A stretch of DNA of 64,000 nt from Dastarcus helophoroides. Lineage: Eukaryota > Arthropoda > Insecta > Coleoptera > Bothrideridae. The translations under genes and the position numbers were made by a program. The DNA is taken from the NCBI GenBank assembly GCA_028583605.1, contig CM053327.1, positions 46,464,010-46,528,009 on the forward strand, given 5' to 3'. Shown in pieces: positions 1 to 64,000 of this stretch; the first letter of the stretch is position 1, and each line of letters begins with the position of its first letter. The notes beneath the pieces were generated by a model, which was given only the letters and a program-made list of their open reading frames with translations, did no database searches and was not told the DNA's origin.

Positions 1-2188
1 GACCTTGTGTGCATGTGACCTTGAACTCATGTGGCTATGACCTTACGTGATCTTCAGACAGAGATAAAAAATTTAAATTAATTTGATTTTTCTATACTTC
101 ACTTTTTTGAAATTTTTGACCCCCATTTCTTTTAGTTGAGGCTTTTTTATTCAAATTTTGAATTTTTTACGAAATTTCACTTCTATTGTTATTTGAAATA
201 AATAATCAATGAAAAATTTTACTCAAAATTTTAAGTTGAAGCTTTCAGTTTTTTTTAGACATTTCTAGGAAATTTCGATTTTTTTCTGAATAAGTTATTT
301 AAGAAAATTGCGTTTGATCTCAAAATTTTAACCCATTTTTAAAATTTCGATATTTACTTTATTTCTTTCTTAATTTTAAATTGTAACTTGAAATTTTGAG
401 TTGTATCAGCTATGTTTCAACGTTGACTTTATAAAGCCTTGAAAGAACGTGACCTTGTGCGCATGTAACCTTCAACACATGTGACCTTGACCTCACGTGA
501 CCTTGAAAGAACCCGACCTTGTGTGCATGTGACCTTGAACTCATGTGACTTTGACCTTACGTGATCTTGAAAGAACGTGACCTTGTACGCATATGACCTT
601 GAACTAGCGTGATTTTGAACGTGCATAACATTGAACTCACGCGACCTCAAGTGCACATGAGCTTGAACTCAGGTGACCTTGACCTCATAAAGCCTTAAAA
701 GAACGTGACCTTGTGCGCATGTGACCTTGTACACGTATGACCTAGACCTCACGTAACCTTGAAAGAACCTGACCTTGTGTGCATGTGACCTTGAACTCAT
801 GTGACTATGACCTTACGTGATCTTCAGACAGAGATAAAAAATTTAAATTAATTTGATTTTTCCATACTTCGCTTTTTTGAAATTTTTGATCCCCATTTCT
901 TTTAGTTGAGGTTTTTTTTTCAAATTTTGAATTTTTTACGAAATTTCACTTCAATTGTTATTTGAAATAAATAATCAATGAAAAATTTTACTCAAAATTT
1001 CAAGTTGCAGCTTTCAGTTTTTTTTAGACATTTCCTGGAAATTTCGATTTTTTTCTGAATATGTTATTTTAGAAAATTGCGTTTGATCTCAAAATTTTAA
1101 CCCATTTTAAAAAATTCGGTATTTACTTTATTTCTTTCTAAAATTTTGAATTGGAACTGGAAATTTTGAGTTTTTTCAGCTGTTTCAATGTTGACTTCAT
1201 AAAGCCTTGAAAGAAAGTGACCTTGTGCTCATGTGACCTTCAACACATGTGACCTTGACCTCACGTAACCTTGAAAGAACCCGACCTTGTATGCATGTGA
1301 CCTTGAACTCATGTGACTTTGATCTTACGTGGTCTTGAAAGAACATGACCTTGTACATACATGACCTTGAACTAACGTGACTTCGAACGTGCATAACATT
1401 GAACTCACGTGACCTTGACCTCATAAAGCCTTGAAAGAACGTGACCTTGTGCGCATGTGACCTTGTACGCATATGACCTAGACCTAACGTAACCTTGAAA
1501 GAACCTGACCTTGTGTGCATGTGACCTTGAACTCATGTGACTATGACCTGACGTGATCTTCAGACAGATAAAAAATTTAAATTAATTTGATTTTTCTATA
1601 CTTCGCTTTTTTGAAATTTTTGATCCCCATTTCTTTTAGTTGAGGCTTTTTTATTCAAAATTTGAATTATTTACGAAATTTCACTTCAATTGTTATTTGA
1701 AATACATAATCAATGAAAACTTTTACTCAAAATTTCAAGTTAAAGCTTTCAGTTTTTTTTTAGACATTGCCTGGAAATTTCGATTTTTTTCTGAATAAGT
1801 TATTTTAGAAAATTGCGTTTGATCTTAAAATTTAAACCCATTTTTAAAAATTCGGTATTTACCTTATTTCTTTCTAAAATTTTGAATTGGAACTTGAAAT
1901 TTTGAGTTTTTTCAGCTATGTTTCAACGTTAACCTTATAAAGCCTTGAAAGAACGTGACCTTGTGCGCATGTGACCTTCAGCACATGTGACCTTGACCTC
2001 ACGTGACCTTAAAAGAACCCGACTTTGTGTGCATGTGACCTTAAATTCATCTAACTTTGACTTTACTTGATTTTGAAAGAACGTGACCTTGTACGCACAT
2101 GACCTTGAACTAGCGTGACTTTGAACGTGCATAACATTGAACTCACGCGACCTTGAGAGCACATGAGCTTGAACTTAGGTGACCTTTA
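1..2188. repeat. Higher-order satellite: TGACCTTGA blocks alternating with AT-rich spacers
   Basis: Three long units begin with the same sequence near positions 1, 774 and 1507, so the period is about 730-770 bp. Each has an AT-rich spacer (about 60-420, 835-1190 and 1565-1930) followed by a block of ~20-bp subrepeats built on GTGACCTTGA with variable links such as ACTCAT, CGCAT or AAGAAC. Minus-strand open frames through the blocks (e.g. 429-656, 1197-1520, 1935-2162) are translations of the subrepeat (recurring SRS, KVT, HVQ) and I do not take them as genes. The spacers are nearly identical to each other, which suggests recent amplification or homogenisation. Confidence 0.93.
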
Positions 2189-11580: not shown

Positions 11581-11584
11581 TTTC

Positions 11585-14500
11585 TAGTTTAGCCTAGTCT
11601 AGACTAGTTTACCCTAGTCTAGACTAGTCTAGTCTAGTCTAATCTCTAGTCTAGTCTAGTCTAGGCTAGGCTAGTCTAGTCTAGTCTAGTTTAGTCTCTA
11701 GTCTAGTCTAGTCTCTAGTCTAGTCTAGTCTCTAGTCTCTAGTCTCTAGTCTAGTCTAGTCTAGTCCAGTCTCCAGTTTTAGTCTAGTCCCCAGTCTAGT
11801 CTAGTCTAGTCTAGTATAGTCTAGTCTAGTCTAGTCTCCAGTCTCCAGTCTCCAATCTAGTATAGTCTAGTCTAGTCTAGTCTAGTCTAGACTAATCTAG
11901 TCTAGTCTAGGCTAGTCTAGTCTAGTGTAAACTAGTCTAGTCTAGTCTAGTCTCCAGCCTAGTCTAGTCTAGTCTAGTCTAGTGTAGTCTAGTCTAGTCT
12001 AGTGTAGTCTAGTCTAATCTAGTCTAGACTAATCTAGTCTAGTTTAGTCTCTAGTCTAGTCTAGTCTCTAGTCTCTAGTCTCTAGTCTCTAGTCTCTAGT
12101 CTCTAGTCTAGTCTAGTCTAGTCTCCAGTTTGGTCTAGTCTCCAGTCTAGTCTAGTCTAGTCTAGTCTAGTCTATTCTCCAGTCTCCAGTCTCCAGTCTC
12201 CAGTCTCCAGTCTCCAGTCTCCAGTCTCCAGTCTCCAGTCTCCAGTCTCCAGTCTCCAGTCTAGTATAGTCTAGTCTAGTCTAGTCTAGTCTAGACTAAT
12301 CTAGTCTAGTCTAGTCTAGTCTAGTGTAAACTAGTCTAGTGTAAACTAGTCTAGTCTAGTCTAGTGTAATCTAGTCTAGTCTAGTCTAGTCTCCAGACTA
12401 GTCTAGCCTCCAGCCTAGTCTAGTCTCCAGCCTAGTCTAGTCTAGTCTAGTGTAGTCTAGTGTAGTCTAGTCTAGTCTAGTCTAGTCTAGTTTAGTCTCT
12501 AGTCTAGTCTCTAGTCTCTAGTCTCTAGTCTCTGGTCTCTAGTCTAGTCTAGTCTCCAGGTTAGTCTAGTCTCCGGTCTAGTCTAGTCTAGTCTAGTCTA
12601 GTCTAGTCTCCAGTCTCCAGTTTAGTATAGTCTAGTCTAGTCTAGTCAAGTCTAGTCTAGTCTAGACTAATCTAGTCTAGTCTAGTCTAGTCTAGTGTAA
12701 TCTAGTCTAGTCTAGTCTCCAGTCTAGTCTAGTCTAGTCTAGTGTAGTCTAGTGTATTCTAGTCTAGTCTAGTCTAGTTTAGTCTAGTCTAGTCTAGTCT
12801 AGTCTAGTATAGTCTAGTCTAGTCTAGTGTAGTCTAGTCTATTCTTTCGTCTAGTCTCCAGTCTAGTCTAGTTTAGTCTAGTCTAGTCTAGTCTAGTCTA
12901 GTCTCCAGTCTAGTCTAGTCTAGTCTCCAGTTTAGTCTAGTCTTCAGTCTAGTCTAGTCTAGTCTAGGCTAGTCTAGTCTCCAGGTTAGTCTTGTCTAGT
13001 TTAGTCTAGTCTAGTCTAGTCTATTCTCCAGTCTCCAGTCTAGTCTAGTCCAGTCTAGTCTAGTCTAGTTTAGTCTAGTGTGGTCTAGTCTAGTCTAGTC
13101 TGGTCTCCAGTTTAGTCTAGTCTAGTCTAGTCTAGTCTAGTCTAGTCTCCAGTTTAGTCTAGTCTCCAGTCTAGTCTAGTCTCCAGTCTCCAGTCTCCAG
13201 TCTCCAGTCTCCAGTCTCCAGTCTCCAGTCTAGTATAGTCTAGTCTAGTCTAGTCTACTCTAGTCTAGTCTACTCTAGTCTAAGCTAATCTAGTCTAGTC
13301 TAGTGTAATCTAGTCTAGTCTAGTGTAAACTAGTCTAGTCTAGTCTAGTCTAGTCTAGTCTAGTCTAGTCTAGTCTAGTCTAGTCTCCAGTTTAGTATTG
13401 TCTAGTCTAGTCTAGTCTATTCTAGTCTAGTATAGTCTATTCTCCAGTCTCCAGTCTAGTCTAATCTAGTCTAGTCTAGTCGAGTCTAGTCTAGTCTAGT
13501 GTCCAGTTTAGTCTAGTTTCCAGTCTAGTCTATTTTCCAGTCTAGTCTAGTCTGGTCTAGTCTAGTCCAGTCTAGTCTCCAGTTTAGTCTAGTCTCCAGT
13601 CTAGTCTAGTCTAGTCTAGTCTCCAATTCGGTCTAGTTTCCCGTCTAGTCTAGTCTAGTCTAGTCTAGTCTAGTCTAGACTAATCTAGTCTAGTCTAGGC
13701 TAGTCTAGTCTAGTGTAAACTAGTCTAGTCTAGTCTAGTCTCCAGCCTAGTCTAGTCTAGTCTAGTGTAGTCTAGTCTAGTCTAGTGTAGTCTAGTCTAG
13801 TCTAGTCTAGACTAATCTAGTCTAGTTTAGTCTCTAGTCTAGTCTAGTCTCTAGTCTCTAGTCTCTAGTCTCTAGTCTCTAGTCTCTAGTCTAGTCTAGT
13901 CTAGTCTCCAGTTTAGTCTAGTCTCCAGTCTAGTCTAGTCTAGTCTAGTCTAGTCTATTCTCCAGTCTCCAGTCTCCAGTCTCCAGTCTCCAGTCTAGTA
14001 TAGTCTAGTCTAGTCTAGTCTAGTCTAGACTAATCTAGTCTAGTCTAGTCTAGTCTAGTGTAAACTAGTCTAGTGTAAACTAGTCTAGTCTAGTCTAGTG
14101 TAATCTAGTCTAGTCTAGTCTAGTCTCCAGACTAGTCTAGCCTCCAGCCTAGTCTAGTCTCCAGCCTAGTCTAGTCTAGTCTAGTGTAGTCTAGTGTAGT
14201 CTAGTCTAGTCTAGTCTAGTCTAGTTTAGTCTCTAGTCTAGTCTCTAGTCTCTAGTCTCTAGTCTCTGGTCTCTAGTCTAGTCTAGTCTCCAGGTTAGTC
14301 TAGTCTCCGGTCTAGTCTAGTCTAGTCTAGTCTAGTCTAGTCTAGTCTCCAGTTTAGTCTAGTCTCCAGTCTAGTCTAGTCTCCAGTCTCCAGTCTCCAG
14401 TCTCCAGTCTCCAGTCTCCAGTCTCCAGTCTCCAGTCTCCAGTCTCCAGTCTCCAGTCTAGTATAGTCTAGTCTAGTCTAGTCTACTCTAGTCTAGTCTA

Positions 14501-15536
14501 CTCTAGTCTAAGCTAATCTAGTCTAGTCTAGTCTAGTCTAGTGTAATCTAGTCTAGTCTAGTCTAGTCTAGTGTAAACTAGTCTAGTCTAGTCTAGTCTA
14601 GTCTAGTCTAGTCTAGTCTAGTCTAGTCTAGTCTAGTCTAGTCTAGTCTAGTCTAGTCTAGTCTAGTCTAGTCTCCAGTTTAGTATTGTCTAGTCTAGTC
14701 TAGTCTATTCTAGTCTAGTATAGTCTATTCTCCAGTCTCCAGTCTAGTCTAATCTAGTCTAGTCTAGTCGAGTCTAGTCTAGTCTAGTGTCCAGTTTAGT
14801 CTAGTTTCCAGTCTAGTCTATTTTCCAGTCTAGTCTAGTCTGGTCTAGTCTAGTCCAGTCTAGTCTCCAGTTTAGTCTAGTCTCCAGTCTAGTCTAGTCT
14901 AGTCTAGTCTCCAATTCGGTCTAGTTTCCCGTCTAGTCTAGTCTAGTCTAGTCTAGTCTAGTCTAGTCTTCAGTCTAGTATAGTCTAGTCCCTACTTTAG
15001 TCTAGTCTATCTAGTCTAGTCATTTCTAGTCTCTAGTCCAGTTTGGTCTAGTCTAGTCTAGTCTAATCTTGTCTAATCTAGTCTAGTCCAGTCTAGTCTA
15101 ATCTCCAGTCTCCAGTCTAGTCTAGTCTAATCTAGTCTAGTCTAGTCTAGTCTAGTCTAGTCTCTAGTCTAGTCTAATCAAGTCTTGTATAGTTTAATCT
15201 AGTCTTGTATAGTCTAATCTAGTCTAGTCTCCAGTCTAGTCTAGTCTAGTCTAGTCTAGTCTAGTCTCCAGTCTAGTGTCTAATCTAGTCTAGTCTAGTA
15301 TAGCCTAGTCTAGTTTAGCCTAGTCTAGTCTAGTCTAGTCTAGTCTAGTCTAATATAGTCTAGTCTAGCCTCTAGTCTAGTCTAGTCTAGTCTAGTCTAG
15401 TTTAGTCTAGTCTAGTCTAGTCTAATCTAGTCTAGTCTAGTCTATAGCCTAGTTTAGTCTAGTGTATAGTCTAGTTTAATCTACTCTAGTCTAGTCTATA
15501 GTCTAATCTAGTCTAGTCTGGTCTAGTCTAGTTTAA
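11585..15536. repeat. (TCTAG)n pentanucleotide satellite with variants
   Basis: Nearly 4 kb of TCTAG units, mixed with 6-bp TCTCCAG and TCTCTAG runs and point variants. Irregular landmarks recur: CAATTCGGTCTAGTTTCCCG near 13625 and 14912 (about 1.29 kb apart), and TCTCTGGTCTCTAG near 12530 and 14265 (about 1.74 kb apart). Large segments of the array have therefore been duplicated as blocks. No open frame of note. Confidence 0.95.
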
Positions 15537-27126: not shown

Positions 27127-28323
27127 CTAGTATATAGTATATAGTATGTAGTATATAGTATATAGTGTATAGTGTATAGTGTATAGTGTATAGTGTATAG
27201 TGTATAGTGTATAGTGCATAGTGTATAGTGTATAGTATATAGTATTAGTATATAGTACATAGTATATAGTATATAGTGTATAGTCTATAGTATATAATAT
27301 ATAGTATATAGTATATAGTATATAGCATATAGTATATGGTATATGGTATATAGTATATAGTATATAGTATATAGTATATAGTATATAGTATATAGTATAT
27401 AGTGTATAGTATATAGTATATAGTATATAGTACATAGTATATAGTATATAGTATATAGTGTATAGTCTATAGTATATAATATATAGTATATAGTATATAG
27501 TATATAGCATATAGTATATAGTATATGGTATATGGTATATAGTATATAGTATATAGTATATAGTATATAGTATATAGTATATAGTATATAGTATATAGTA
27601 TATAGTATATAGTATATAGTATATAGTATACGGTATATAGCATATGGTATATGGTATATGGTATATGGTATATGGTATATAGTATATAGTAGATAGTATA
27701 TAGTATATAGTATATAGTATATAGTATGCAGTATATAGTACATGGTATATAGTATATAGTACATAGTACATAGTACATAGTATATAGTATATAGTATATA
27801 GTATATAGTATATAGTATATAGTATATAGTATATAGTATATAGTATATAGTATATAGTATATAAAATATAGTATATAGCATATAGTATATAGTATATGGT
27901 ATATGGTATATAGTATATAGTATATGATATATGGTATATGATATATGGTATATGGTATATAGTATATAGTACATAGTATATGGTATATGGTATATAGTAT
28001 ATAGTATATAGTATATAGTATATAGTATATAGTATATAGTATATAGTATATAGTATATAGTATATAGTATTTAGTATATAGTGTACAGTATATAGCATAT
28101 GGTATATGGTATATATAATATAGTATATAGTATATAGTATATAGTATATAGTATATAGTAGATAGTATATAGTATAGTATATAGTATATAGTATATAGTA
28201 TATAGTATATAGTATATAGTATATAGTATATAGTATATAGTATATAGTATATAGTATATAGTATATAGTATATAGTATATAGTATATAGTATATAGTATA
28301 TAGTATATAGTATATAGTATACT
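27127..28323. repeat. (TATATAG)n heptanucleotide array, ~1.2 kb
   Basis: A tandem 7-mer GTATATA with point variants (GTGTATA, GTACATA, GGTATA), almost uninterrupted. Seven is not a multiple of three, so all minus frames stay open where TAG is absent and give long Tyr/Ile/Leu repeats (up to 323 codons). These are not genes. Confidence 0.97.
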
Positions 28324-36340: not shown

Positions 36341-36344
36341 GATA

Positions 36345-36475
36345 AGGAAGGCTTCCACGGCCGGTCAGTCAGTACAGGATATACTTCTTCCGGGATTGGA
36401 CCGTGTTAAAGTACTACTAAAAGTAGTAGTAGTTCTTTGACACGTTCCAATCCCGGAAGAAGTATATCCTGCACT
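36345..36475. mobile_element. Fold-back family G, palindromic copy without core
   Basis: GTACAGGATATACTTCTTCC with GGGATTGGACCGTGT, and its inverse CCAATCCCGGAAGAAGTATA, meet at ACTACTAAAAGTAGTAGTAG. The hammerhead-like block is missing. It is a short perfect-type palindrome. Confidence 0.8.
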
Positions 36476-41509: not shown

Positions 41510-41761
41510 TTAGACGACAGGGTAAGAGGCGTCTGTTGCAATGCCACAGTTGTTATCACGATTGCGCGACATTCTGATGTAACCGTTTTCGCCCCATTCC
41601 GGTCCCCACGAATTTTTAACTATCCAGTAATGCTGATTATTCTCGGTACAGTAACCGACGGCCAGAATTCCGTGATTCAACATCGAAGTGCTGCATCAAT
41701 CTTCATAAAAGATCCCGGATTCATACAATTAAAAATAAGATGCATCCACACCAACGGAAAT
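41510..41761 (-). pseudogene. Cathepsin L-like cysteine protease, 3' fragment
   Basis: On the minus strand the frame reads ISVGVDASYF, stop, LYESGIFYED, stop, [16 protein letters not shown], then [38 protein letters not shown] and a stop at 41510-41512. This is the C-terminal end of a papain-family (C1A) cathepsin L, with the catalytic His (LNHG) and Asn (KNSWG) regions preserved. Two in-frame stops (TAA 41729-41731, TGA 41696-41698) and a roughly two-codon deletion after DAS mark it as a pseudogene. GYC replaces the usual GYG. Homology stops at 41761, where a hAT-like repeat begins. Alternative: the part from 41690 down could be an intact terminal exon after a poor acceptor (GATGCAG), which I consider less likely. 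I saw no other cathepsin exon in the window. Confidence 0.82.
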
Positions 41762-42546: not shown

Positions 42547-43390
42547 GTAAGTACACGATAATTTTTGCTACGTTAGTTTTACTCCAACGTTTACTTTTGT
42601 CTATCATCGGATATCTATTTGCCTACCCTGTCTCAAGTGACATTGCACGCCACTGCAACAATGCTATAAACTGTTACTTTGAATATAGATCAAGAAATGA
42701 TAAAAGGAGTATATATGCACCACTAATATTTTACTTGCTTCTATTCAAGTGTCTAATATTTGTTAGGTAGTTACGTGAGGTTGAAAATCTCACTGAAGAG
42801 CTTTTAGTGATGATTTATCTGCTCCGGATTGCCTGTCATATGCGCGTTGGAAGCCTGCAAGGGTGGTTATACGGTTTTAAACAGGTGTTCCGGACACCTC
42901 TATTCACACTGTTTCCACATCCTTATGGATTTTCAAAACTCACACATAAAAAAATTACTGTGGCCATCCACAAGTTCATAAAGATTATAATTTTAGAAGC
43001 TATCGAAACGAAAACGCTTTTGACACATAATCCTTTTTTTATTAATAGATTTATTATCACTAACGTCACTATAACACTGTAGGATTAATAGGCCATTGAT
43101 TTTATAAGTATGATTCAAAAAAAGACACCTCAAAAAAAAATCTGTAATAGTTCTTTGACATAGTCCAATTCTGAAAGAAGTGTATTTTACAAAACTTACA
43201 AAAATGACGAAAACTTTACAAAAATTATTAGGTAGGAGGTATTAATCACACTGTAGTTATTCGGTGGTGAATATCTCGACTGATTTAATCAGAAATAAAT
43301 CAACTATCCGCTGCAACCCCAATCAAGGCGATAGTTGCCCATATTACTGATTCTTGTTGTTTGAGTTACGATAAACTTTAAAAAAGTGAT
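42547..43390. other. Mostly unique DNA, no gene established
   Basis: Frames at 42540-42770 and 42807-43082 have no domain and weak context. A diverged family-G scrap lies near 43147-43195, and the word AGGTAGGAGGTATTAATCAC occurs at about 43230 and 43405. Confidence 0.4.
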
Positions 43391-43514
43391 TACAAAAATT
43401 ATTAGGTAGGAGATATTAATCACACTGTAGTTGATAACGAAGGCTTTCCACAGCCTGAGTCAGTACAGGATATACTTCTTTCGGGATTGGACCCTGTCAA
43501 AGAACTACTAAAAG

Positions 43515-43561
43515 TGTTCGACACGTTTCGCCCACCATCGTAGGGGGCTTCTTCAGGAACA
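43515..43561 (-). ncRNA. Hammerhead-like ribozyme candidate, family G (minus)
   Basis: Minus strand: TGTTC (stem I), CTGAAGA, A, GCCC, 11-nt loop, GGGC, GAA, ACGTGT (stem III of 2 bp), C17, GAACA (stem I). All core bases fit CUGANGA...GAAA...GUC. Confidence 0.5.
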
Positions 43562-43642
43562 AAGAAAAGAAAAAATGAAAAAAGGAATTCTTTCATTTTT
43601 GCATATTCTCTCATATTCCTCTTTTCATTTTTTTCTTTTCTT

Positions 43643-43689
43643 TGTTTCTGAAGAAGCCCCCTACGATGGTGGGCGAAACGTGTCGAACA
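43643..43689 (+). ncRNA. Hammerhead-like ribozyme candidate, family G
   Basis: TGTTT (stem I, one G-U pair), CTGAAGA, A, GCCC, loop, GGGC, GAA, ACGTGT, C, GAACA. Confidence 0.5.
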
Positions 43690-43856
43690 CTTTTAGTAGT
43701 TCTTTGACACGGTCCAATCCCGGAAGAAGTATATCCTGTATTGACTCTAGCCGTGGAAGCCTTCGTTATCAACAAAGAAAAGAAAAAAATGAAAAGAGGA
43801 ATTCTTTCATTTTTACATATTCCCTCATATTCCTCTTTTTAATTTTTTCTTTTCTT

Positions 43857-43901
43857 TGTTCCTGAAGAAGCCCCCTACGATGGTGGGCGAAACGTCGAAC
43901 A
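43857..43901 (+). ncRNA. Hammerhead-like ribozyme candidate, family G
   Basis: TGTTC, CTGAAGA, A, GCCC, loop, GGGC, GAA, ACGT, C, GAACA. Stem I is perfect over 5 bp. Stem III is reduced to ACGT with no loop, so activity might need a dimeric fold. Confidence 0.5.
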
Positions 43902-44215
43902 CTTTTAGTAGTTCTTTGACACGGTCCAATCCCGGAAGAAGTATGTACTGGTCCTTGGTTATCTTTAAAAATTGAAATACAGAACTTGTGTTGAAATGAA
44001 TTGTTTGCGTTACGATAAATCTTAATAAGTTTCATGACAATTAATACAGCTGTATTCGTGTTAGATCTAACGGGCTTTCCAGTCTACTGAAATACTAATG
44101 CAGAAAAAATTCTAAGATTATTTCATGCCCATAAACCGAGTAAACGCTTGTAGTTGCAAGATTCCTTCCTGCTTCCAGTATTAAGACGAACAGTACCATC
44201 ACGACCGTCAAAGAA

Positions 44216-49662: not shown

Positions 49663-50358
49663 TTTCGATCCGGTTTTTCTATGGACCAATAGGTGGTAGT
49701 ACTAAGAGTCACTCGCTTGACGTCTGTGAATGTTTTCGTACTTACTTGTCGGAACATTTGTTAGCATTCGAGTTGGATATACCAAACTGACGAGATTTAA
49801 CAAGATCGAAACCGGTATTTGGTCTCCAAACTTCGAATCTAATAAATGTCCAAACCTATTGGTCTGTGCATTAGAATCCTTGTCTTCTGGGAACTCTCCT
49901 AGAGAGCAACCGCTTCGCTAGGTGGCAGTGTTTCAACTGTTGGTAGTTCAGCTACCTATGATTCACTATACACGCCGCCTGGAGGGATGCATGAATTTGT
50001 AGTCTAGGTTGCATTCTTCTTGCAAAAGACTAGATAGTTTTAGCTGAAGGATCGCAGCAGAAAAACAATTGGACGCGAAACTTGAACTTAAAAAAAAACC
50101 ATCTAATCTTCCAGAATTTAGAAAGAATATTCAAATTCTAAATGTTCGGGTACAAACTTTAAATTTGGGATAAAAGTTAAAATCATGAATTTGATTAACA
50201 TTTAAAAAAAATTTTTAAAAAAGGTTTTTCTCCAGCTGACTTCAAACTATGTCTTCAAATAGAGCACTTTCTATAGGCATTTTTCATACAAAACTGCGGG
50301 TTATAGAAGTCAAAGATAAATTTTAGTAAAGGAATATCTTTCGACTAATTTTATCATC

Positions 50359-50652
50359 TTAGGTTAGGTTAAGTTAGCTTAGGTTAGGTTAGGTTAGGTT
50401 AGGTTAGGTTAGGTTAGGTTAGGTTAGGTTAGGTTAGTATAGATTAGGTTAGGTTGGGTTGGGTTGGGTTAGGTTAGGTTACGTTAGGTTAGATTAGGTT
50501 AAGTTAGGTTAAGTTAGGTTAGGTAAGGATAGATTAGGTTAAGTTAGGTTAGGTAAGGATAGATTAGGTTAGGTTAGGTTAGGTTAGGTTGGGTTGGGTT
50601 GGGTTGGGTTGGGTTGGGTTGGGTTGGGTTAGGTTAAGTTAGGTTAGGTTAG
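50359..50652 (+). repeat. Interstitial (TTAGG)n array 1
   Basis: About 290 bp of TTAGG with TTGGG runs near 50454-50470 and 50588-50632, and some TAAGG/TTACG changes. TTAGG is the ancestral arthropod telomere repeat. Confidence 0.93.
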
Positions 50653-51664
50653 GCATTTTTCATACAAAACTGCGGCTTATAGAAGTCAAAGATAAATTTT
50701 TGAAAAGGAATATCTTTCGAGTAATTTTATCATCTTACCCACACATTGCTTTTATTTGGGAATTAGATTTAAGATAAATAAGCAACGTTGTTGTTAAATT
50801 ACTTTGTTAGAATGTTAGAAGAGTTAGACAATAATAATATTAATAGTAAAGTAGTATTGGGCCGTGGTTTCTGAGCTCTAACCTAAACGCAAACAAAGAC
50901 TAGGTACTATAATGCACAGAGAGATTTGAACATTTATTAGATTCGAAGTTTGGAAACCAAATACCGGTTTCGATCCGGTTTTTCTATGGACCAATAGGTG
51001 GTAGTACTAAGAGTCACTCGCTTGACGCATGTGAATGTTTTAGTACCTACTTGTCGGAACATTTGTTAGCATTCAAGTTGGATATACCAAACTGACGAGA
51101 TTTAACAAGATCGAAACCGGTATTTGGTCTCCAAACTTCGAATCTAATGAATGTTCAAACCTATTGGCCTGTGCATTAGAATCCTTGTCTTCTGGGAACT
51201 CTCCTAGAGAGCAACCGCTTCGCTAGGTGGCAGTGTTTCAACTGTTGGTAGTTCAGCTACCTATGATTCACTATACACGCCGCCTGGAGGGCTGCATGAA
51301 TTTGTAGTCTAGGTTGCATTCTCCTTGCAAAAGACTAGATAGTTTTAGCAGAAGGATCGCAGCAGAAAAACAATTGGACGCGAAACTTGAACTTAAAAAA
51401 AAAACATCTAATCTTCCAGAATTTAGAAAGAATATCCAAATTCTAAATGTTCGGGTACAAACTTTAAATTTGGGATAGAAGTTTAAATTATGAATTTGAT
51501 TAAAATTGGAAAAAAATTTAAAAAAAAAGGTCTTTCTCCAGCAGACTTCAAACTATGTCTTTAAATAGAGCACTTTCTAAAGGCATTTTTCATACAAAAC
51601 TACGGGTTATAGAAGTCAAAGATCAATTTTAGTAAAGGAATATCTTTCGAGTAATTTTATCATC

Positions 51665-52259
51665 TTAGGTTAGGTTAGGTTAGGTTGGGTTAGGTTAGGT
51701 TAGGTTAGGTTAGGTTAGGTTAGGTTAGGTTAGGTTAGGTTAGGTTAGGTTAGGTTAGGTTAGGTTAGGTTAGGTTAGGTTAGGTTAGGTTAGGTTAGGT
51801 TAGGTTAGGTTAGGTTAGGTTAGGTTAGGTTAGGTTAGGTTAGGTTAGGTTAGATTAGGTAAGGTTAGGTTAGGTTAGATTAGGTTAGGTTAGGTTAGGT
51901 TAGATTAGGTTAGGTTAGGTTAGGTTAGTATAGGTTAGGTTGAGTTGGGTTGGGTTGGGTTGGGTTGGGTTAGGTTGGGTTGGGTTGGGTTGGGTTGAGT
52001 TGGGTTGAGTTGAGTTGAGTTGGGTTGGGTTGGGTTGGGTTGGGTTGGCTTGGCTTGGCTTGGCTTGGCTTGGCTTGGCTTGGCTTGGCTTGGCTTGGCT
52101 TGGCTTGGCTTGGCTTGGCTTGGCTTGGCTTGGCTTGGCTTGGCTTGGGTTGTGTTGGGTTGGGTTGGGTTGGGTTGGGTTGGGCTGGGCTGGGTTGGGT
52201 TAGGTTAGGTTAGGTTAGGTTAGGTTAGGTTGGGTTAGGTTAGGTTAGGTTAGGTTAGG
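51665..52259 (+). repeat. Interstitial (TTAGG)n array 2, grading into TTGGG and TTGGC
   Basis: A nearly perfect TTAGG run (about 51665-51940) is followed by TTGGG/TTGAG (51945-52045), pure TTGGC (about 52046-52147), TTGGG again, and TTAGG at the end. The pentamer makes three open frames with WLGLA repeats (52015-52213), which are not genes. Confidence 0.95.
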
Positions 52260-52975
52260 CATTTTTCATACAAAACTGCGGCTTATAGAAGTCAAAGATA
52301 AATTTTAGAAAAGGAATATCTTTCGAGTAATTTTACCATCTTACCCACACATCTGCTTTTATTTGGAAATTAAATTAATATAAATAGGCAACGTTGTTGT
52401 TAAATTACTTTGTTAGAATGTTAGAATAGTTAGACAATAATAATATTAATAGTAAAGTAGTATTGGACCGTGGCTTCTGAGCTCTAACCTAAACGCAATC
52501 AAAGCCTAGGTACTATAATGCACAGACCAATAAGCTTGAACATTTATTAAATTCGAAGTTTGAAAACCAAATACCGGTTTCGATCCGGTTTTTTTATGGA
52601 CCAATAGGTGGTAGTACTAAGAGTCACTCGCTTGACGCATGTGAATGTTTTAGTACTTACTTGTCGGAACATTTGTTAGCATTCAAGTTGGATATACCAA
52701 ACTGACGAGATTTACCAAGATCGAAACCGGTATTTGGTTTCCAAACTTCGAATCTAGTAAATGTTCAAATCTATTGGTCTGTGCATTAGAATCCTTGTCT
52801 TCTGGGAACTCTCCTAGAAAGCAACCGCTTCGCTAGGTGGCAGTGTTTCAACTGTTGGTAGTTCAGCTACCTATGATTTACTATACACGCCGCGTGGAGG
52901 GCTGCCTGAGTTTGTAGTCTAGGTTGCATTCTTCTTGCAAAAGACTAGATAGTTTTAGCAGAAGGATCGCAGCCC

Positions 52976-53395
52976 ACCCCCCCCCCCCCCCGAAAAACAC
53001 CCTAGTTACGGGCCTGATGTAAGCTTACTTTTTACTACATTTTTTATGCAAAAATAATAATGATAGTTTATTTCGGGGCATCGACAATCTAAAAAGAAAA
53101 GAAAATCCTGATAAACAGAAATTTGTAAAAATAGAATGCAACCTGAACTACGTGCAACCTTCTAGGTGTGCATAGTGAATCATATGTAGCTGAACTACGA
53201 ACAGTTGAAACACAAACGTTTAGCAAAGCGATTGCTCTCTGGAAAGGTCCTAGAAGACAAGGATTCTAATGCACAGACCAATAGGTTTAAACATTTATTC
53301 GATTTGAAGTTGGGAAACCAAATACCTTGGACCTAAACAAGATTTAAACCGTTCTTTGGTTTCCAAACCTTCGAATCTAATAAATGTTCAAACCT
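52976..53395. repeat. Poly-C tract and diverged family-T copy
   Basis: A run of about 15 C lies at 52979-52992. Then comes AT-rich DNA and an inverted-type family-T segment (AGAAGACAAGGATTCTAATG, GCACAGACCAATAGGTT) from about 53130 to 53395. Confidence 0.7.
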
Positions 53396-53396
53396 A

Positions 53397-56300
53397 CTTT
53401 TTGAAAATGATCATAACTTGAAAACGTGAAAAATGTGTTAACGTTTACGAAATTTTGTTTTTCTTAAAATGTTACACTTTTTTATTACAAATTAATTTCA
53501 ATTTAAAAAAATATCAACTTTCTGTCTTAATATTCGATTTTATTAAGTTCCAATTTCTTAAAAACCTTTTCCGTGAGCTTTTTAGCTAAAGCTGGAAACT
53601 TTTTATTTTTATTTTCCTAAAATTTAAACCTTAAATACAAAACTGAATTTTCTTCTGGAAATCCTGCCGTTGATTTACAAATTTTAATTTCATTCATAGA
53701 AAATCAAAATTTGGACTCTTTTTTTTTCAAAAATGTTAACTTTTTTTCTATTGAAATTTAGACGGTTTTTTTATGAGATTTCGAATTAAAACACGAAATA
53801 ATAATATCACGTAGTCGCATTTCAAAAACTGTTTATAAAATTGTCAACAAACCATAGAAATTTAAATATTTCCAAACTGGGCCGAAGAAATGTTAAACAA
53901 ATTGAAAAAAACGAAATAAAAGATTGCAAATTCGAGTTAAAATTCGCAATTTCGAAATTGTTACTTGAAAATTCTGAATGACTGAAAATCTTGATCTTTT
54001 TAAAAACGTCGAATAAAAAAATCCATTTTGGAAATGTTAAATTTAGAAAAAAACGACTTTTTAGAAAACTTTCACTGTTTCTAGTTTTTTATTGAGAATT
54101 TAGAACTCATTTGAAACTTTGACGCTTGTGTTGAAAAGAAAATGCCAACAGAATACCAACTGGACTACAGTCATACTTATATAGTGAATCATAGGTAGCC
54201 GAACTACCAACAGTTGAACCACAAACACTTGGCGAAGCGGTTGTTCTCTAGGAAGGTCCTAGAAGACAAGGATTCTAATACACAGACCAATAGGTTTAAA
54301 CTTTCATTCGATTCGAAGTTGGGAAACCAAATACCTTCGATCTAAACAAGATCTAAACCGTTCTTTGGTTTCCAAACCTTCGAATCTAATAAATGTTCAA
54401 ACCTACTTTTTGAAAATGATCATAACTTGAAAACGTGAAAAATGTGTTAACGTTTACGAAATTTTGTTTTTCTTAAAATGTTACACTTTTTTATTACAAA
54501 TTAATTTCAATTTAAAAAAATATCAACTTTCTGTCTTAATATTCGATTTTATTAAGTTCCAATTTCTTAAAAACCTTTTCCGTGAGCTTTTTAGCTAAAG
54601 CTGGAAACTTTTTATTTTTATTTTCCTAAAATTTAAACCTTAAATAGAAAACTGAATTTTCTTCTGGAAATCCTGCCGTTGATTTACAAATTTTAATTTC
54701 ATTCATAGAAAATCAAAATTTGGACTCTTTTTTTTTCAAAAATGTTAACTTTTTTTCTATTGAAATTTAGACGGTTTTTTTTTGAGATTTCGAATTAAAA
54801 CACGAAATAATAATATCACGTAGTCGCATTTCAAAAACTGTTTATAAAATTGTCAACAAACCATAGAAATTTAAATATTTCCAAATTGAGCCGAGGAAAT
54901 GTTAAACAAATTGAAAAAAACGAAATAAAAGATTGCAAATTCGAGTTAAAATTCGCAATTTCGAAATTGTTACTTGAAAATTCTGAGTGACTGAAAATCT
55001 TGATCTTTTTAAAAACGTCGAATAAAAAATCCATTTTGGGAATGTTAAATTTAGAAAAAAACGACCTTTTAGGAAACTTTCACTGTTTCTAGTTTTTTAT
55101 TGAGAATTTACAATTCATTTGAAACTTTGACGCTTGTGTTGAAAAGAAAATGCCAATAGAACACCAACTGGACTACAGTCATGCTTATATAGTGAATCAT
55201 AGGTAGCCGAACTACCAACAGTTGAACCACAAACACTTGGCGAAGCGGTTGTTCTCTAGGAAGGTCCTAGAAGACAAGGATTCTAATGCACAGACCAATA
55301 GGTTTAAATTTTCATTCGATTCGAAGTTGGGAAACCAAATACCTTCGATCTAAACAAGATCTAAACCGTTCTTTGGTTTCCAAACCTTCGAATCTAATAA
55401 ATATTCAAACCTACTTTTTGAAAATGATCATAACTTGAAAACGTGAAAAATGTGTTAACGTTTACGAAATTTTGTTTTTCTTAAAATGTTACACCTTTTT
55501 ATTACAAATTAATTTCAATTTAAAAAAAATATCAACTTTCTGTCTTAATATTCGATTTTATTAAGTTCCAATTTCTTAAAAACCTTTTCCGTGAGCTTTT
55601 TAGCTAAAGCTGGAAACTTTTTATTTTTATTTTCCTAAAATTTAAACCTTAAATAGGAAACTGAATTTTCTTCTGGAAATCCTGCCGTTGATTTACAAAT
55701 TTTAATTTCATTCATAGAAAATCAAAATTTGGACTCTTTTTTTTTCAGAAATGTTAACTTTTTTTCTATTGAAATTTAGACGGTTTTTTTTTGAGATTTC
55801 GAATTAAAACACGAAATAATAATATCACGTAGTCGCATTTCAAAAACTGTTTATAAAATTGTCAACAAACCATAGAAATTTAAATATTTCCAAACTGGGC
55901 CGAAGAAATGTTAAACAAATTGAAAAAAACGAAATAAAAGATTGCAAATTCAAGTTAAAATTCGAAATTTCGAAATTGTTACTTGAAAATTCTGAGTGAC
56001 TGAAAATCTTGATCTTTTTAAAAACGTCGACTAAAAAATCCATTTTGGGAATGTTAAATTTAGAAAAAAACGACCTTTTAGAAAACTTTCACTGTTTCTA
56101 GTTTCTTATTGAGAATTTAGAACTCATTTGAAACTTTGACGCTTGTGTTGAAAAGAAAATGCCAATAGAATACCAACTGGACTATAGTCATGCTTATATA
56201 GTGAATCATAGGTAGCCGAACTACCAACAGTTGAACCACAAACACTTGGCGAAGCGGTTGTTCTCTAGGAAGGTCCTAGAAGACAAGGATTCTAATGCAC

Positions 56301-56421
56301 AGACCAATAGGTTTAAACATTCATTCGATTCGAAGTTGGGAAATCAAATACCCTCGATCTAATAAGATCTAAACCGTTCTTTGGTTTCCAAACCTTCGAA
56401 TCTAATAAATGTTCAAACCTA
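53397..56421. repeat. Three tandem units of 1008-1009 bp
   Basis: Boundaries fall after AAACCTAC at 53397, 54406, 55414 and 56421. The units are nearly identical. Each contains AT-rich DNA (GATCATAACTTGAAAACGTG, TTTTTAGCTAAAGCTGGAAA) and ends with a family-T fold-back. The minus frames at 54831-55034 and 55840-56043 are the same position in two units and differ by a few codons; they show no domain, so I do not call a gene. Confidence 0.93.
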
Positions 56422-56760
56422 CAAGATTTTAATGAGGTTCTCTAAGTCACTGAATCATAGGTGGTCGAACTACCAACAGTTAAAACACAAACACTTAGCG
56501 AAGCAGTTGCTCTTTAGGCGCGTGTATAGTGGAATTATAGGTAGCTGAACTACCAACAGTTAAAACACAAACACTTAGCGAAGCGGTTGCTCTCTAGGAA
56601 GTTCCCAGAAGACATGCATAGGCCAATAGATTTGAACATTTATTAGATCCAAAGTTTGGAAACCAAGGATCGGTTTCGATCTCTTTAGATGTCGTCAGTT
56701 TGGTATATCCAACTTGAATGGCAACAAATAAATGTGCTAACCTATTGGTCTGTAAAGAGT
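56422..56760. mobile_element. Fold-back family T copies
   Basis: Two partial copies of GAATCATAGGTGGTCGAACT / GAATTATAGGTAGCTGAACT with ACCAACAGTTAAAACACAAA, followed by GAACATTTATTAGATCC and GGTATATCCAACTTGAATGG. Confidence 0.75.
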
Positions 56761-56925
56761 TTCGTCTCTGGTGTGGTGGACATACTGAGTTAACGTGCTC
56801 TTCTGCCTAAACTTTCTTATCCTTTGTATCCTTTGTACCAATTTTCAATTCAGAAGAGTTTCGCCTCTGGTATGGTGGACATACTGAGTTATCGTGCTCT
56901 AATGTTTTGAAATTGGTCTTTACAT
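56757..56925. repeat. Inverted copy of the 6.6-kb paired repeat
   Basis: GAGTTTCGTCTCTGG, TGGTGGACATACTGAGTTAA, CGTGCTCT, then again GAGTTTCGCCTCTGG and CGTGCTCT. It is the reverse complement of 6590-6748. Confidence 0.8.
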
Positions 56926-56973
56926 TTTTGCATATTCCCTTATATTCCTCTTCTCATTTATTGTTTCTTTCTT

Positions 56974-57018
56974 TGTTCCTGAAGAAGTCCCCTACGATGG
57001 TGGGCGAAACGTCGAACA
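56974..57018 (+). ncRNA. Hammerhead-like ribozyme candidate, family G
   Basis: TGTTC, CTGAAGA, A, GTCC, loop, GGGC (one G-U pair), GAA, ACGT, C, GAACA. It lies in intron 1 of the Gly-rich gene on the same strand. The copy's tail CTGGAAGAAGTATATCCTGT follows. Confidence 0.5.
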
Positions 57019-57302
57019 CTTTTAGTAGTTCTTTGATACGGTCCAACCCTGGAAGAAGTATATCCTGTATTGGTTTGTAATTTAGAGGAATTTATAACTT
57101 ATATGTTTCGAAAGTTTTATTTTCACGTTATTCACTCGATTAGTTTCATTTTTTGTCTTTAAACAATCTGAAACATATGTGGGAAGAAATAGGCGATCGA
57201 AATTACCACTGAATACTATGGTATCATAAATAGTGGCTACAATAATATTAAATTCTAGTACTGCATCACGGTGGTTGCAATAATTATCCTTGTTTGCTCT
57301 AG

Positions 57303-57506
57303 ACACAAAATGAACGAATATTTATGCAGAGGTTTCGTTGCTGAACAAATTGTAAACGAAATGACTTCGTCGCGTATCAAAAGAATGGGGGCTGTCACCC
57401 ACACTCCAGGAATGTCCCCATTTTTAACAGCAAGAAGCCCTGGAGCACTGAAAAATAACCTATTGGGTGACGAGGGGTCCTCCAGTTACAAAGACTGGCT
57501 TACCAA
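57303..57506 (+). CDS. Exon 2 of the secreted/membrane Gly-rich protein
   Basis: The acceptor TTTGCTCTAG precedes ACACAAAATG. The first A completes the Arg codon left open at 44454. The exon encodes residues 80-148, starting HKMNEYLCRG. RIKR at residues 104-107 fits the furin-type R-x-K-R site and is followed by MGAVTHTPGMSPFLTARSPG. Ser/Gly/Asp residues precede YKDWLT at the end. The donor is AA before GTGAGT (57507), and the split codon AA-A gives Lys. The length of 204 nt is a multiple of three, so skipping the exon would keep the frame. No domain family is recognised. Confidence 0.72.
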
Positions 57507-57914
57507 GTGAGTAGTTAATTCGCGAATTTTGTATCTGCTTAAGCAGCTGACTAGGCTTGACAATTTTTACTACTGTGTTCCAATTTTATTTAATAAATGT
57601 TTTTTTAAGCAGCTTTTTTTGAACAGCTTTTTTTTTAAACAGTTTTTTTAAACAGATTTTATTAAACAGTTTTTTTTTATGTTTGATGGAACGGACTGGT
57701 CCTTGATTGATAACGAAGGCTTCCACGGCCAGTGCAGTCAGTACAGGATATACTTCTTCGGGGATTGGACCGTGTCAAAGAACTACTACTTTGACATTTC
57801 GCCCACCATCGTACAGGGCTTCTTCAGGAACAAAGAAAAGAAAAAAGTGAAAAAAGGAATTCTTTCATTTTTGCATATTCCTTCATATTCCCCTTTTCAT
57901 TTTTTTCTTTTCTT

Positions 57915-57961
57915 TGTTTCTGAAGAAGCCCGCTACGATGGTGGGCGAAACGTGTCGAACA
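57915..57961 (+). ncRNA. Hammerhead-like ribozyme candidate, array unit 1
   Basis: TGTTT, CTGAAGA, A, GCCC, loop, GGGC, GAA, ACGTGT, C, GAACA. All core positions agree with CUGANGA and GAAA, and GUC precedes the predicted cleavage site. Confidence 0.5.
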
Positions 57962-58128
57962 CTTTTAGTAGTTCTTTGACACGGTCCAATCCCGGAAGAA
58001 GTATATCCTGTATTGACTCTAGCTGTGGAAGCCTTCGTTATCAACAAAGAAAAGAAAAAAATGAAAAGAGGAATTCTTTCATTTTTGCACATTCCCTCAT
58101 ATTCCTCTTTTTAATTTTTTCTTTTCTT

Positions 58129-58173
58129 TGTTTCTGAAGAAGCCCCCTACGATGGTGGGCGAAACATCGAACA
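58129..58173 (+). ncRNA. Hammerhead-like ribozyme candidate, array unit 2
   Basis: TGTTT, CTGAAGA, A, GCCC, loop, GGGC, GAA, ACAT, C, GAACA. Stem III is changed (ACAT), but A-T still pairs and AUC is a permitted triplet. Confidence 0.45.
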
Positions 58174-58340
58174 CCTTTAGTAGTTCTTTGACATGGTCCA
58201 ATCCCGGAAGAAGTATATCCTATACTGACTCTAGCCGTGGAAGCCTTCGTTATCAACAAAGAAAGGAAAATATTGAAAATAGGAATTTTTTCATTTTGGC
58301 ACATTCCCTCATATTCCTCTTTTTAATTTTTTCGTTTCTT

Positions 58341-58385
58341 TGTTCCCGAAGAAGCCCCCTACGATGGTGGGCGAAATGTCGAACA
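58341..58385 (+). ncRNA. Hammerhead-like block, array unit 3, core mutated
   Basis: TGTTC, CCGAAGA (U4 changed to C), A, GCCC, loop, GGGC, GAA, ATGT, C, GAACA. The U4 change should impair cleavage. Confidence 0.4.
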
Positions 58386-58490
58386 CTTTTAGTAGTTCTT
58401 TGACATGGTCCAATCCCCCAAGCAGTATATCCTGTACTGGTCCTTGGTTATCTTTAAAAATTGAAATACAGAACTCGTCCCCTGTTATTT

Positions 58491-58531
58491 CCCTCTGAAG
58501 ATGACAGCTTGGCCGTCGAAACACGTTAGAG
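58491..58531 (+). ncRNA. Hammerhead-like ribozyme candidate, family C
   Basis: CCCT, CTGAAGA, T, GACAGC, TTG, GCCGTC (one mismatch), GAA, ACACGT, T, AGAG. Core bases are intact, stem I has one mismatch. Confidence 0.4.
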
Positions 58532-58786
58532 CAACCGTTGTTGTGTTTTTTAATCTTTCTTGGCTTCAGGGGACAAGTTTTGTATTTCAATTTTTGAAAA
58601 TAAGCAAGGACCAGTTCATTTCATCAACAAAGTTGATTGGATATTCTCTGTATTTTCTTTGCGACGTTTCGTTAATTTCATTCCTACTGATTGGCATTTT
58701 CTTCGCCAATTGGGGCAATCTATAAAAGATTGACATTCCTTAACATTCCTTAGCTTAACTGTTAATGGTTCCAATACAATTTGTAG

Positions 58787-59205
58787 AAGTACAACACTAG
58801 AGGATATTTATCGTCATTACGATCACATGCAGAACAGAATAGACGAACATGGTTACGATGAAGAAGATAAAGATGATGATTTAAATGAAGAGTACGATGG
58901 ACACGTAACTGGTTACACTTACCAGCATCATGGTGGTCCTCCTCCCAAGCTTGGACACAGCGGTGGTGGATATTATCCATATCCAGCTAGTCAGGGAGGA
59001 TACGGTGGAGGCTACACTGGTGGCGGTGGAGGCCACAGCGGCGGCGGTGGAGGCCACAGCGGTGGCGGTGGAGGCTATGGCGGCGGTGGAGGCTATAGCG
59101 GAGGTGGTGGAGGCTACGGCGGAGGAGGTGGTAGCAGCTACACCTCCAATGGGCATAGCGGATACGGAGGATCAGTCGGTTCTTATGGAGGATCATCGGG
59201 ACATG
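58787..59205 (+). CDS. Exon 3 of the Gly-rich protein: acidic and glycine-rich region
   Basis: The acceptor ACAATTTGTAG precedes AAGTACAAC. The first A completes Lys148. Residues 149-200 run STTLEDIYRHYDHMQNRIDE and then an acidic DEEDKDDD stretch and YTYQHHGGPPP. From about residue 204 to 287 the sequence is mostly Gly with Tyr, Ser and His, in GGGGGHS and GGGGGY repeats built from a GGCGGTGGAGGC-type DNA repeat. The donor is GGACATG before GTGCGT (59206), with one base carried. Such Gly/Tyr-rich tracts occur in extracellular matrix and cuticle proteins, but with the membrane helix of exon 4 a structural surface protein is equally possible. Frames in the other phases (58930-59340 and minus strand) are shadows. 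Confidence 0.82.
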
Positions 59206-59928
59206 GTGCGTTTCATCATCTTAATAGAGGCCTTTACACTTTTACTCTTTGGCGCTGGTTTAGCGCGCTCCGTTTCGATTGCGCGCGAAAAAAGCGTCAA
59301 TAAAAATGCAAAATGGTCACCTGAGAAAAGAATGAGTTAAAATACCATGAATTGATTCAAGGTAAAAGATCGCGAGCGTATGGAATGTAGCATTCCTAAT
59401 AACGAACTTCTGTAACGCCACGTTCTTTGCATATCGCTTGGAACGTGCGATTGGCGCGTCCTGACAAGATCACGCGAAAAGACTGTAAGAAGGCGTATGC
59501 ATTGTTGGCGATGGCCATAGTTTCTCTATGGGCCATTAGGTGGCAGTACTAAGAATCACTTGCTTGACGTCTGTGAATGTTTTAGTACTTACTTGTCGGA
59601 ACATTTGTTAGCATTCGAGTTGGATATATCAAACTGACGAGATCTAACAAGATCGATACCGTCGGACTTGTCGGAACATTTGTTTGGTTTCTCCAAACTT
59701 CGAATCTAATAAATGTTCACACCTATTGGCCTCTGTGCATTAGAATCCTTGTAAGAAGGTGGTTCATCGCCATCTATCTTTGTTTCCGCATCCTACTCGC
59801 AGTGCTTTGAATGGGGTTACCCTTTGCGAGTGGATTAAACTTAAAAAAAAAGTGTAAAGGAGCCTTAATAAAACAATTGTGCTTTATTTTCAACTTTTGC
59901 AACAAATGTAACGTACTTTGCTTTTAAG
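59206..59928 (+). other. Intron 3 of the Gly-rich gene, with a family-T fragment
   Basis: Donor GTGCGT, acceptor TTGCTTTTAAG. A fold-back family-T segment (ATTAGGTGGCAGTACTAAGA to GCATTAGAATCCTTGT) occupies about 59530-59752. A dispersed CGAGTGGATTAAACTTA repeat follows near 59835, shared with 5268. Confidence 0.65.
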
Positions 59929-63660: not shown

Positions 63661-63688
63661 GAAATTATGATGTATTGGCCAACTCGGG

Positions 63689-64000
63689 ATGTTATTGTTA
63701 TTCGATTCAGAAGAAAAAGTGCTAATTATTAAGTGGTATTTAACCTCCCAGAGCGGTGAAGAAGTCGTTGGGCGATTCGCTTTTTCCTACGAAGATCGAC
63801 CAATACCTGATGCAAAGGCGGTGTTAAATATCGTCCACAAATTTGAAAAATCGGGATGCATAACAGGTTGTAATAATAAGTGTTGTTTGGAAGCGCGTCA
63901 ACCTGAATGTGACAGGCCATTATCCGACGAAAGAATGGCTAAGGAGTTAGCTGTATTGCATTTGTCGAAGCAAAATGAACCTTGTTCTAGTGAACAGATC
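63689..64000 (+). CDS. Transposase-like helix-turn-helix protein, 5' part
   Basis: The frame is open from the ATG at 63689 (in-frame TGA at 63668) to the window end, 104 codons without a stop. The translation has SEEKVLIIKWYLTSQSGEEV, then GRFAFSYEDRPIPDAKAVLN, IVHKFEKSGCITG, a Cys-rich linker (CNNKCCLEARQPEC) and DRPLSDERMAKELAVL followed by CSSEQI. This layout (a KxxIIKWY helix, a RF...Y.DRP.P line, VLNIVHKFEKSG, then GRP-like DRPLSDE) fits the N-terminal DNA-binding region of mariner/DUF4817-type transposon proteins in arthropods. The extra Cys pairs are odd. It may be a transposon, a domesticated gene, or one exon of a larger gene; the catalytic part is outside the window. The minus-strand frame 63729-63920 is a shadow. 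Confidence 0.6.
   Translation, partial: MLLLFDSEEKVLIIKWYLTSQSGEEVVGRFAFSYEDRPIPDAKAVLNIVHKFEKSGCITGCNNKCCLEARQPECDRPLSDERMAKELAVLHLSKQNEPCSSEQI

What the first reader, a model, noticed from the sequence alone, without database searches (positions are those of the whole stretch)
57915..58531. Direct array of hammerhead-like ribozymes with ~210-bp monomers inside an intron
Three direct units (57915, 58129, 58341) share TGTTY, CTGAAGA, one extra A, a GCCC/GGGC hairpin, GAAA, a minimal stem III, a UC triplet and GAACA. TGTTY and GAACA pair as stem I, and the rest fits the hammerhead rule CUGANGA-stem II-GAAA-stem III-UH. Short tandem monomers with minimal-stem-III type I hammerheads are known from animal retrozymes and Penelope-like elements. 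Here they are on the transcribed strand of intron 2 of a host gene, so a cleaving RNA could affect pre-mRNA or give small circular RNAs. The fit is by eye; the extra base before stem II and the tiny stem III are departures.
Basis: partly seen in the sequence, partly recalled or inferred. Interest (0 to 1): 0.87.

Follow-up and report, generated by a model that had tools for sequence, protein, structure and literature searches.

The report
Jumping-gene ends carrying weak hammerhead motifs
Three repeats in an intron of a beetle-like gene look like leftover end pieces of a Penelope-like jumping gene, a kind known to carry a stripped-down self-cutting RNA motif at this spot, so the ribozyme-like signal is probably real but of a known kind and probably does nothing here.

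Summary
The three repeats and the hammerhead-like grammar are there, but the third unit's core is broken (CCGAAGA): two of three cores are intact. A grammar allowing one base before stem II gave 2 hits in 200 shuffled windows. Rfam shows no hammerhead here; I built no relaxed stem-III model.

Best explanation: solo pseudo-LTRs of a Penelope-like element (PLE). One inverted copy faces three direct copies head to head, between 11-bp target-site duplications, inside the tail of another palindromic element. Copies end at two places after an ATG in loop II: +103..105 (7 of 12) and +67..76 (5 of 12). That fits the optional ~31-bp PLE 'tail' in print. PLEs are reported to carry minimal hammerheads lacking helix III.

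Cleavage in this intron looks unlikely. Stem I has a mean probability of about 0.002 or less in 15 folds of five copies, unit 1 is sequestered by its inverted copy, and the PAc PLE hammerhead needed PLE protein in vitro. No PLE enzyme was seen in the window (10 of 144 listed ORFs scanned) and the host genome could not be searched. New member of a known kind; low interest.

The parts
57507..58786 (+). Host intron (GT donor at 57507, AG acceptor ending at 58786) holding the whole structure
   Evidence: Splice sites read; joined exons align without a break at the junction to a Tenebrio molitor protein, 84/141 identical
57682..57705 (-). Left end of palindromic element B, interrupted by the insert; its last 11 bases are one copy of the target-site duplication
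   Evidence: Joined flanks match 11181-11122 (88%, 60 bp), 20323-20262 (79%, 62 bp) and 58627-58567 (87%, 61 bp) across the junction
57695..57705 (.). Target-site duplication, left copy (ACTGGTCCTTG)
   Evidence: Longest exact repeat between the two boundary regions compared, 11 bp
57706..57860 (-). Inverted pLTR-like copy, 3' end outward, tailed (+105); its hammerhead has lost most of stem I (right edge approximate)
   Evidence: BLAST to 57707-57860 and end point
57861..58044 (+). Direct copy, unit 1, ending at +105 (left edge approximate, inside a palindrome)
57915..57961 (+). Hammerhead-like motif of unit 1: TGTTT - CTGAAGA - A - GCCC..GGGC - GAAA - CGTG - TC - GAACA; core intact
58045..58256 (+). 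Direct copy, unit 2, ending at +105
58129..58173 (+). Hammerhead-like motif of unit 2; core intact, stem III strand ACAT
58257..58435 (+). Direct copy, unit 3, tailless (+76)
58341..58385 (+). Hammerhead-like motif of unit 3; core changed to CCGAAGA
58436..58446 (.). Target-site duplication, right copy (ACTGGTCCTTG)
58436..58627 (+). Remainder of palindromic element B (arms 58433-58484 and 58567-58618; right edge approximate)
58491..58531 (+). Second hammerhead-like motif (family B): CTGAAGA - T - GACAGC/GCCGTC - GAAA - CACG - TT - AGAG; weak stem I, one mismatch in stem II
   Evidence: it does not pass the strict scan

Best explanation
The array is a nested insertion of solo pseudo-LTRs (pLTRs) of a Penelope-like retroelement: one inverted copy head to head with three direct copies, inserted into the tail of another palindromic element inside an intron of a beetle-like gene. 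Each pLTR carries the minimal, helix-III-less type I hammerhead reported at the pLTR/ORF junction of PLEs, with an ATG in loop II. In a living element the motif may cleave tandem transcripts as a dimer or with the help of the PLE protein (taken from the literature). In this intron it is most likely an inert, decaying fossil. Shown here: copies, end points, TSD, paralogous empty site, head-to-head order, grammar, broken third core. Inferred: PLE parentage (no RT or endonuclease seen), and lack of activity.
For: Copies end at +103..105 (7 of 12) or +67..76 (5 of 12) after the ATG in loop II; counted by distinct flank this is 5 and 4, because some junctions are shared. In print the PLE 'tail' is an optional 30-40 bp (PMC11167929) or 31-bp (PMC3846280) extension, and PAc RT starts 111-118 bp into the ORF. 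Each of the three A composites (57706, 43430, 36341; the first two share descent) has one tailed and one tailless outer end, as told of Pen2a_Av. Head-to-head pLTRs, palindromes at the inverted junction and TSDs of 8-10 bp are in the same passages, though some copies there have none; here the TSD is 11 bp and the joined flanks match three other stretches across the join. PLE hammerheads usually lack helix III and the PAc ORF starts at stem II. Here 35 codons are open from the ATG on a composite reference, and unit 2 itself is open there. Inserts of one or two bases between CUGAnGA and a stem are not excluded in known alignments. Stem III strands can self-pair in 7 of 9 A copies, counting G-U, as dimer hammerheads need.
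Against: No PLE reverse transcriptase or GIY-YIG sequence was found; only 10 of 144 listed ORFs were scanned with Pfam. Rfam shows no hammerhead for family A: none in 28 rows at E up to 10 for 57000-59600 and none in a 71-base search of the 43862 copy. No compensatory change in nine copies. Core positions change at 2 of 90 cells against 21 of 431 in the tail, too few to show selection on the ribozyme. Three of nine copies carry a 2-base insert (CGTG) after the ATG that shifts the frame. The 43862 end is 71 ungapped, and could be 76 with a gap (my reading). The host genome could not be searched.
Confidence: 0.85

Rival explanations
1. A retrozyme: a non-autonomous element of ~212-nt tandem monomers whose hammerheads cut the transcript and give circular RNA, later reverse transcribed by a PLE enzyme. 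(It overlaps with the best explanation; the odds are not exclusive.)
For: Monomer of 212 bp in fixed register, GC 0.37-0.40, TSD longer than 4 bp. Published animal retrozymes are 150-450 bp tandem repeats with GC <50% and, when present, TSDs longer than 4 bp. [quoted passage not shown] The same monomer junction occurs at two loci.
Against: The coral paper sets the minimal PLE-type hammerheads apart from the canonical ones found in retrozyme repeats, and most invertebrate retrozyme motifs are said to form a stable helix III. The two loci also share the junction to the B tail, so they descend from one composite and are not two rolling-circle events. Single and inverted copies with PLE-like tails need no circle.
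Confidence: 0.1
2. A working intronic ribozyme array that cleaves the host pre-mRNA or makes small circular RNAs with a host role.
For: Motif on the transcribed strand of a real intron; two intact cores; the stem III strands of units 2 and 3 are complementary, 4 of 4. Conserved human intronic hammerheads are in print (passage of PMC3088659).
Against: Third core mutated; mean stem I probability at most 0.00204 in 15 folds, about 1e-12 for unit 1 in 800 nt, and about 1e-13 and 3e-5 for units 1 and 2 in the intron fold; the insert has the TSD of a mobile element; PAc hammerhead RNA was inactive without PLE protein in vitro. Complementary ACAT and ATGT are also what decay of one CpG on either strand gives (inference).
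Confidence: 0.03
3. Chance resemblance: a palindromic DNA repeat that only looks like a hammerhead. (The pLTR reading could still hold.)
For: No Rfam hammerhead; extra base; almost no stem III; about 0.01 hits per shuffled window, with a grammar fixed after the fact; no covariation.
Against: Family C in the same window has the grammar with other stems and matches Rfam HH9 at 27.7 bits, E 1.6e-5 for the 101 bases searched; the site was chosen first, so over 64 kb this is nearer 0.01, and the gathering score is 52. Family B is similar, with one U-A to C-G double change, but that is not beyond shuffles and no B copy passes the strict scan. The A motif sits where PLE hammerheads are reported relative to the tail ends.
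Confidence: 0.08

Closest known systems
Minimal hammerheads in pLTRs of Penelope-like elements (Cervera & de la Pena 2014; Lunse et al. 2017; neither held; known here through passages of PMC6155905, PMC7761336 and PMC6466107)
   Same: Type I order, no real helix III, core CUGANGA/GAAA/UH, tandem context, stem III strand that can self-pair in 7 of 9 copies
   Different: One extra base before stem II (the passage allows inserts of one or two); only solo pLTR-like copies, no ORF seen; no cleavage shown
PAc, Poseidon PLE of Anolis carolinensis (PMC11167929, main text read)
   Same: Hammerhead near the ORF start; genomic copies end at two RT start sites separated by the tail
   Different: ATG in loop II here, at the start of stem II in PAc; cut site 17-19 nt after the ATG here against 26; ends at +103..105 against RT starts at 111-118
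Pen2a_Av and Pen2 of Adineta vaga (PMC3846280, passages)
   Same: Direct plus inverted pLTRs, head-to-head order, palindrome at the 5' end of the pLTR, optional 31-bp tail at one end, 9- and 10-bp TSDs
   Different: No coding region between the copies here; three direct copies in tandem; TSD of 11 bp
Animal non-LTR retrozymes (PMC7229834, sections read)
   Same: ~212-bp tandem monomers, low GC, TSD longer than 4 bp
   Different: Hammerhead of the minimal PLE type; no RNA evidence; single and inverted copies with discrete tail ends

Membership tests
Type I hammerhead ribozyme | Core CUGANGA, GAAA and UH in type I order | tested here: met
   Seven of nine A copies keep CTGAAGA; unit 3 (CCGAAGA) and the minus copy near 6538 (CTAAAGA) do not; GAAA and TC are present in all nine. 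Of the finding's three units, two of three
Type I hammerhead ribozyme | Stem II directly after the core | tested here: not met
   One extra A in nine of nine copies; [quoted passage not shown]
Type I hammerhead ribozyme | Stable helix III in the monomer | tested here: not met
   ACGT, ACGTGT, ACAT, ATGT or ACCT: at best one or two pairs
Type I hammerhead ribozyme | Covariance-model support (Rfam) | tested here: not met
   a model with relaxed stem III was not built
Type I hammerhead ribozyme | Compensatory change in stems | tested here: inconclusive
   Nine copies, 96.3% of cells paired, no double change
Type I hammerhead ribozyme | Self-cleavage | not testable with these tools
   Needs an assay
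Penelope-like element (solo pLTR) | Optional tail of about 30 bp: two discrete 3' ends | tested here: met
   +103..105 in 7 of 12, +67..76 in 5 of 12
Penelope-like element (solo pLTR) | Head-to-head inverted copy, palindrome at the junction, TSD | tested here: met
Penelope-like element (solo pLTR) | Minimal hammerhead lacking helix III in the repeat | tested here: met
   By sequence grammar only
Penelope-like element (solo pLTR) | ORF starting at or in stem II | tested here: inconclusive
   ATG in loop II and 35 open codons on a composite reference; three of nine copies are frameshifted; no parent ORF known
Penelope-like element (solo pLTR) | RT and GIY-YIG ORF of the parent element | tested here: inconclusive
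   None among 10 of 144 listed ORFs scanned; genome not searchable
Animal retrozyme | 150-450 bp tandem repeat, GC <50%, TSD longer than 4 bp | tested here: met
Animal retrozyme | Canonical type I hammerhead | tested here: inconclusive
   Minimal motif without helix III; loop contacts not analysed; amphibian retrozymes also lack a clear helix III
Animal retrozyme | Linear and circular monomer RNA | not testable with these tools
   Needs RNA data

The most novel reading that the evidence does not exclude
The 212-bp monomer array is a retrozyme in the making: PLE pLTRs that have begun to spread without the PLE body as tandem hammerhead monomers, which would tie animal retrozymes to Penelope-like elements by descent.
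Probability: 0.1. Interest if true: 0.5.

Novelty: new member of a known kind. Interest (0 to 1): 0.2.

Why it matters
It shows that a by-eye hammerhead call can be right in kind and still be explained by transposon anatomy. A review passage calls the in vivo role of PLE hammerheads 'still a mystery'. A beetle-like genome with three hammerhead-like families side by side, one of them (C) closer to canonical, could be a useful place to test it. The intronic position by itself is no evidence of function.

Tried and rejected
Rfam at the gathering threshold on the window found 0 matches. At E up to 10 on 57000-59600 it gave 28 rows, none a hammerhead and all below their gathering scores; most are miRNA-type matches to the palindromes. 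An exact scan of viral contigs for the A motif found 0. A Pfam scan of 10 of the 144 ORFs listed (295 before a low-complexity filter) found no retroelement enzyme, only DUF4817 and papain-family matches. Covariation gave no support in A and one double change in B that shuffles reach. Conservation of core against tail was too weak to call. A protein search for PLE relatives with the 35-codon tail peptide was considered and not run, because the tool returns only proteins of similar length.

B and C end points also seem to cluster (B about +99..103 and +115..127; C about 184-194 and 231-238 from the core start, besides shorter and longer matches). These are local-alignment ends not checked base by base and are not used as evidence.

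Full report
What is there. The finding's three units exist, with cores at 57920, 58134 and 58346. Each reads TGTT[T/C], core, one A, GCCC...GGGC, GAAA, a short stretch, UC, GAACA. The third core is CCGAAGA, so the statement that all share CTGAAGA is wrong. Putative cut points lie 212 nt apart. BLAST of the unit against the window finds an inverted copy at 57707-57860 facing unit 1, a sister composite at 43430-43989, single copies at 56917-57072 and 6415-6593 (minus; these two share a longer stretch, 56755-57072 with 6750-6443), and fragments at 36341-36475 and 43142-43185.

Is it more than chance. A grammar scan found six family-A and three family-C hits. 200 dinucleotide shuffles gave 2 hits with the extra base and 3 without at the same stem lengths, and 9 with stem II of at least 3 bp and no extra base. 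The grammar was set after reading the motif and the copies are one origin, so the weight is about one in a hundred. Rfam does not see family A or B (one copy). It matches one family-C copy as Hammerhead HH9 at 27.7 bits, E 1.6e-5 for 101 bases, below the gathering score of 52.

What it is. The main evidence is the shape of the insert. It sits between two copies of ACTGGTCCTTG (57695-57705, 58436-58446). Joining the flanks gives a stretch that matches other copies of a palindromic element B straight across the join: 88% over 60 bp at 11181-11122, 79% over 62 bp at 20323-20262, and 87% over 61 bp at 58627-58567, the element's own other arm. So family A inserted into the tail of a B element that was already in the intron. 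Aligned to a 105-nt reference that starts at the ATG in loop II, seven of twelve copies end at +103..105 and five of twelve at +67..76. By distinct flank these are five and four: units 1, 2 and 43648 share one junction, and 43862 and 58346 another. The end of 43862 is 71 as aligned and could be 76 with a gap. Each of the three A composites has one tailed and one tailless outer end; two of the three share descent.

Comparison with print. In Adineta vaga, Pen2a_Av has two direct pLTRs plus an inverted pLTR, a 9-bp TSD and an optional 31-bp tail at one of the inverted pLTRs. Head-to-head order is called the most frequent, palindromes mark the junctions, and some copies have no TSD (passages of PMC3846280). 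[quoted passage not shown] main text of PMC11167929). Passages of two reviews state that PLE hammerheads are usually minimal and lack helix III (PMC6155905, PMC7761336). Another says dimer hammerheads need a palindromic stem III sequence and tandem motifs (PMC6466107). Here the strands are ACGT or ACGTGT in five of nine copies, ATGT in two, ACAT and ACCT in one each; seven of nine can self-pair if G-U counts. [quoted passage not shown] The two primary papers on PLE hammerheads were not held.

How it probably works. In an active PLE, tandem transcripts would place two such motifs in one RNA, and cleavage could occur as a dimer or with protein help; PAc hammerhead RNA showed no cleavage without protein. 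Here ViennaRNA gives stem I a mean probability of at most 0.00204 for five A copies in three contexts each. For unit 1 within 800 nt it is about 1e-12, because the inverted copy pairs with it; in the intron fold (57509-58786) it is about 1e-13 for unit 1 and 3e-5 for unit 2. Family C forms stem I at about 0.82 in four of six folds; the other two gave 0.33 and about zero. These energies ignore tertiary contacts and protein. The host intron (57507-58786) is supported by a Tenebrio molitor protein aligned across the junction. The search with residues 1-120 returned four proteins: Tenebrio, Cryptolaemus, Onthophagus and Cloeon (that these are three beetles and a mayfly is recalled).

Limits. Parentage is inferred from the ends, not from an RT gene: 10 of 144 listed ORFs were scanned and the genome could not be searched. 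Nothing here shows cleavage or its absence. Covariation is uninformative, and the core is not measurably better kept than the tail (2 of 90 against 21 of 431 cells).

Noticed in passing
49787, 51092, 52702 (+): A better hammerhead than the one reported: ACCAAA-CTGACGA-GAT..ATC-GAAA-CCGG-TA-TTTGGT, palindromic stem III ACCGGT, Rfam HH9 27.7 bits for the copy tested (49787), in tandem units of about 1.3 and 1.6 kb; degenerate copies at 59634 (+) and 56698 (-).
   Followed up: partly
about 50360-50650 and 51660-52260: Long TTAGG-type (insect-telomere-like, recalled) arrays inside the tandem hammerhead units, flanked by direct repeats of 88 bp (50274-50361 and 50650-50737, 95%).
   Followed up: partly
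8553, 19145, 20130, 58495 (+), 35504 (-): Second hammerhead-like family (B) with an ATG at the start of stem II; one U-A to C-G double change in stem II in two of five copies; the minus copy has CTGAACA.
   Followed up: partly
53172-56422: Tandem repeats of about 1009 bp carrying inverted pieces of the family C hammerhead region.
   Followed up: no
11583-15532 and 27128-28321: Very long short-period arrays (TCTAG and TAGTATA); a 411-aa reading frame runs through the second.
   Followed up: no
63674-63997 (+) and 41513-41695 (-): A DUF4817 helix-turn-helix ORF near the window end and a papain-family protease fragment.
   Followed up: partly
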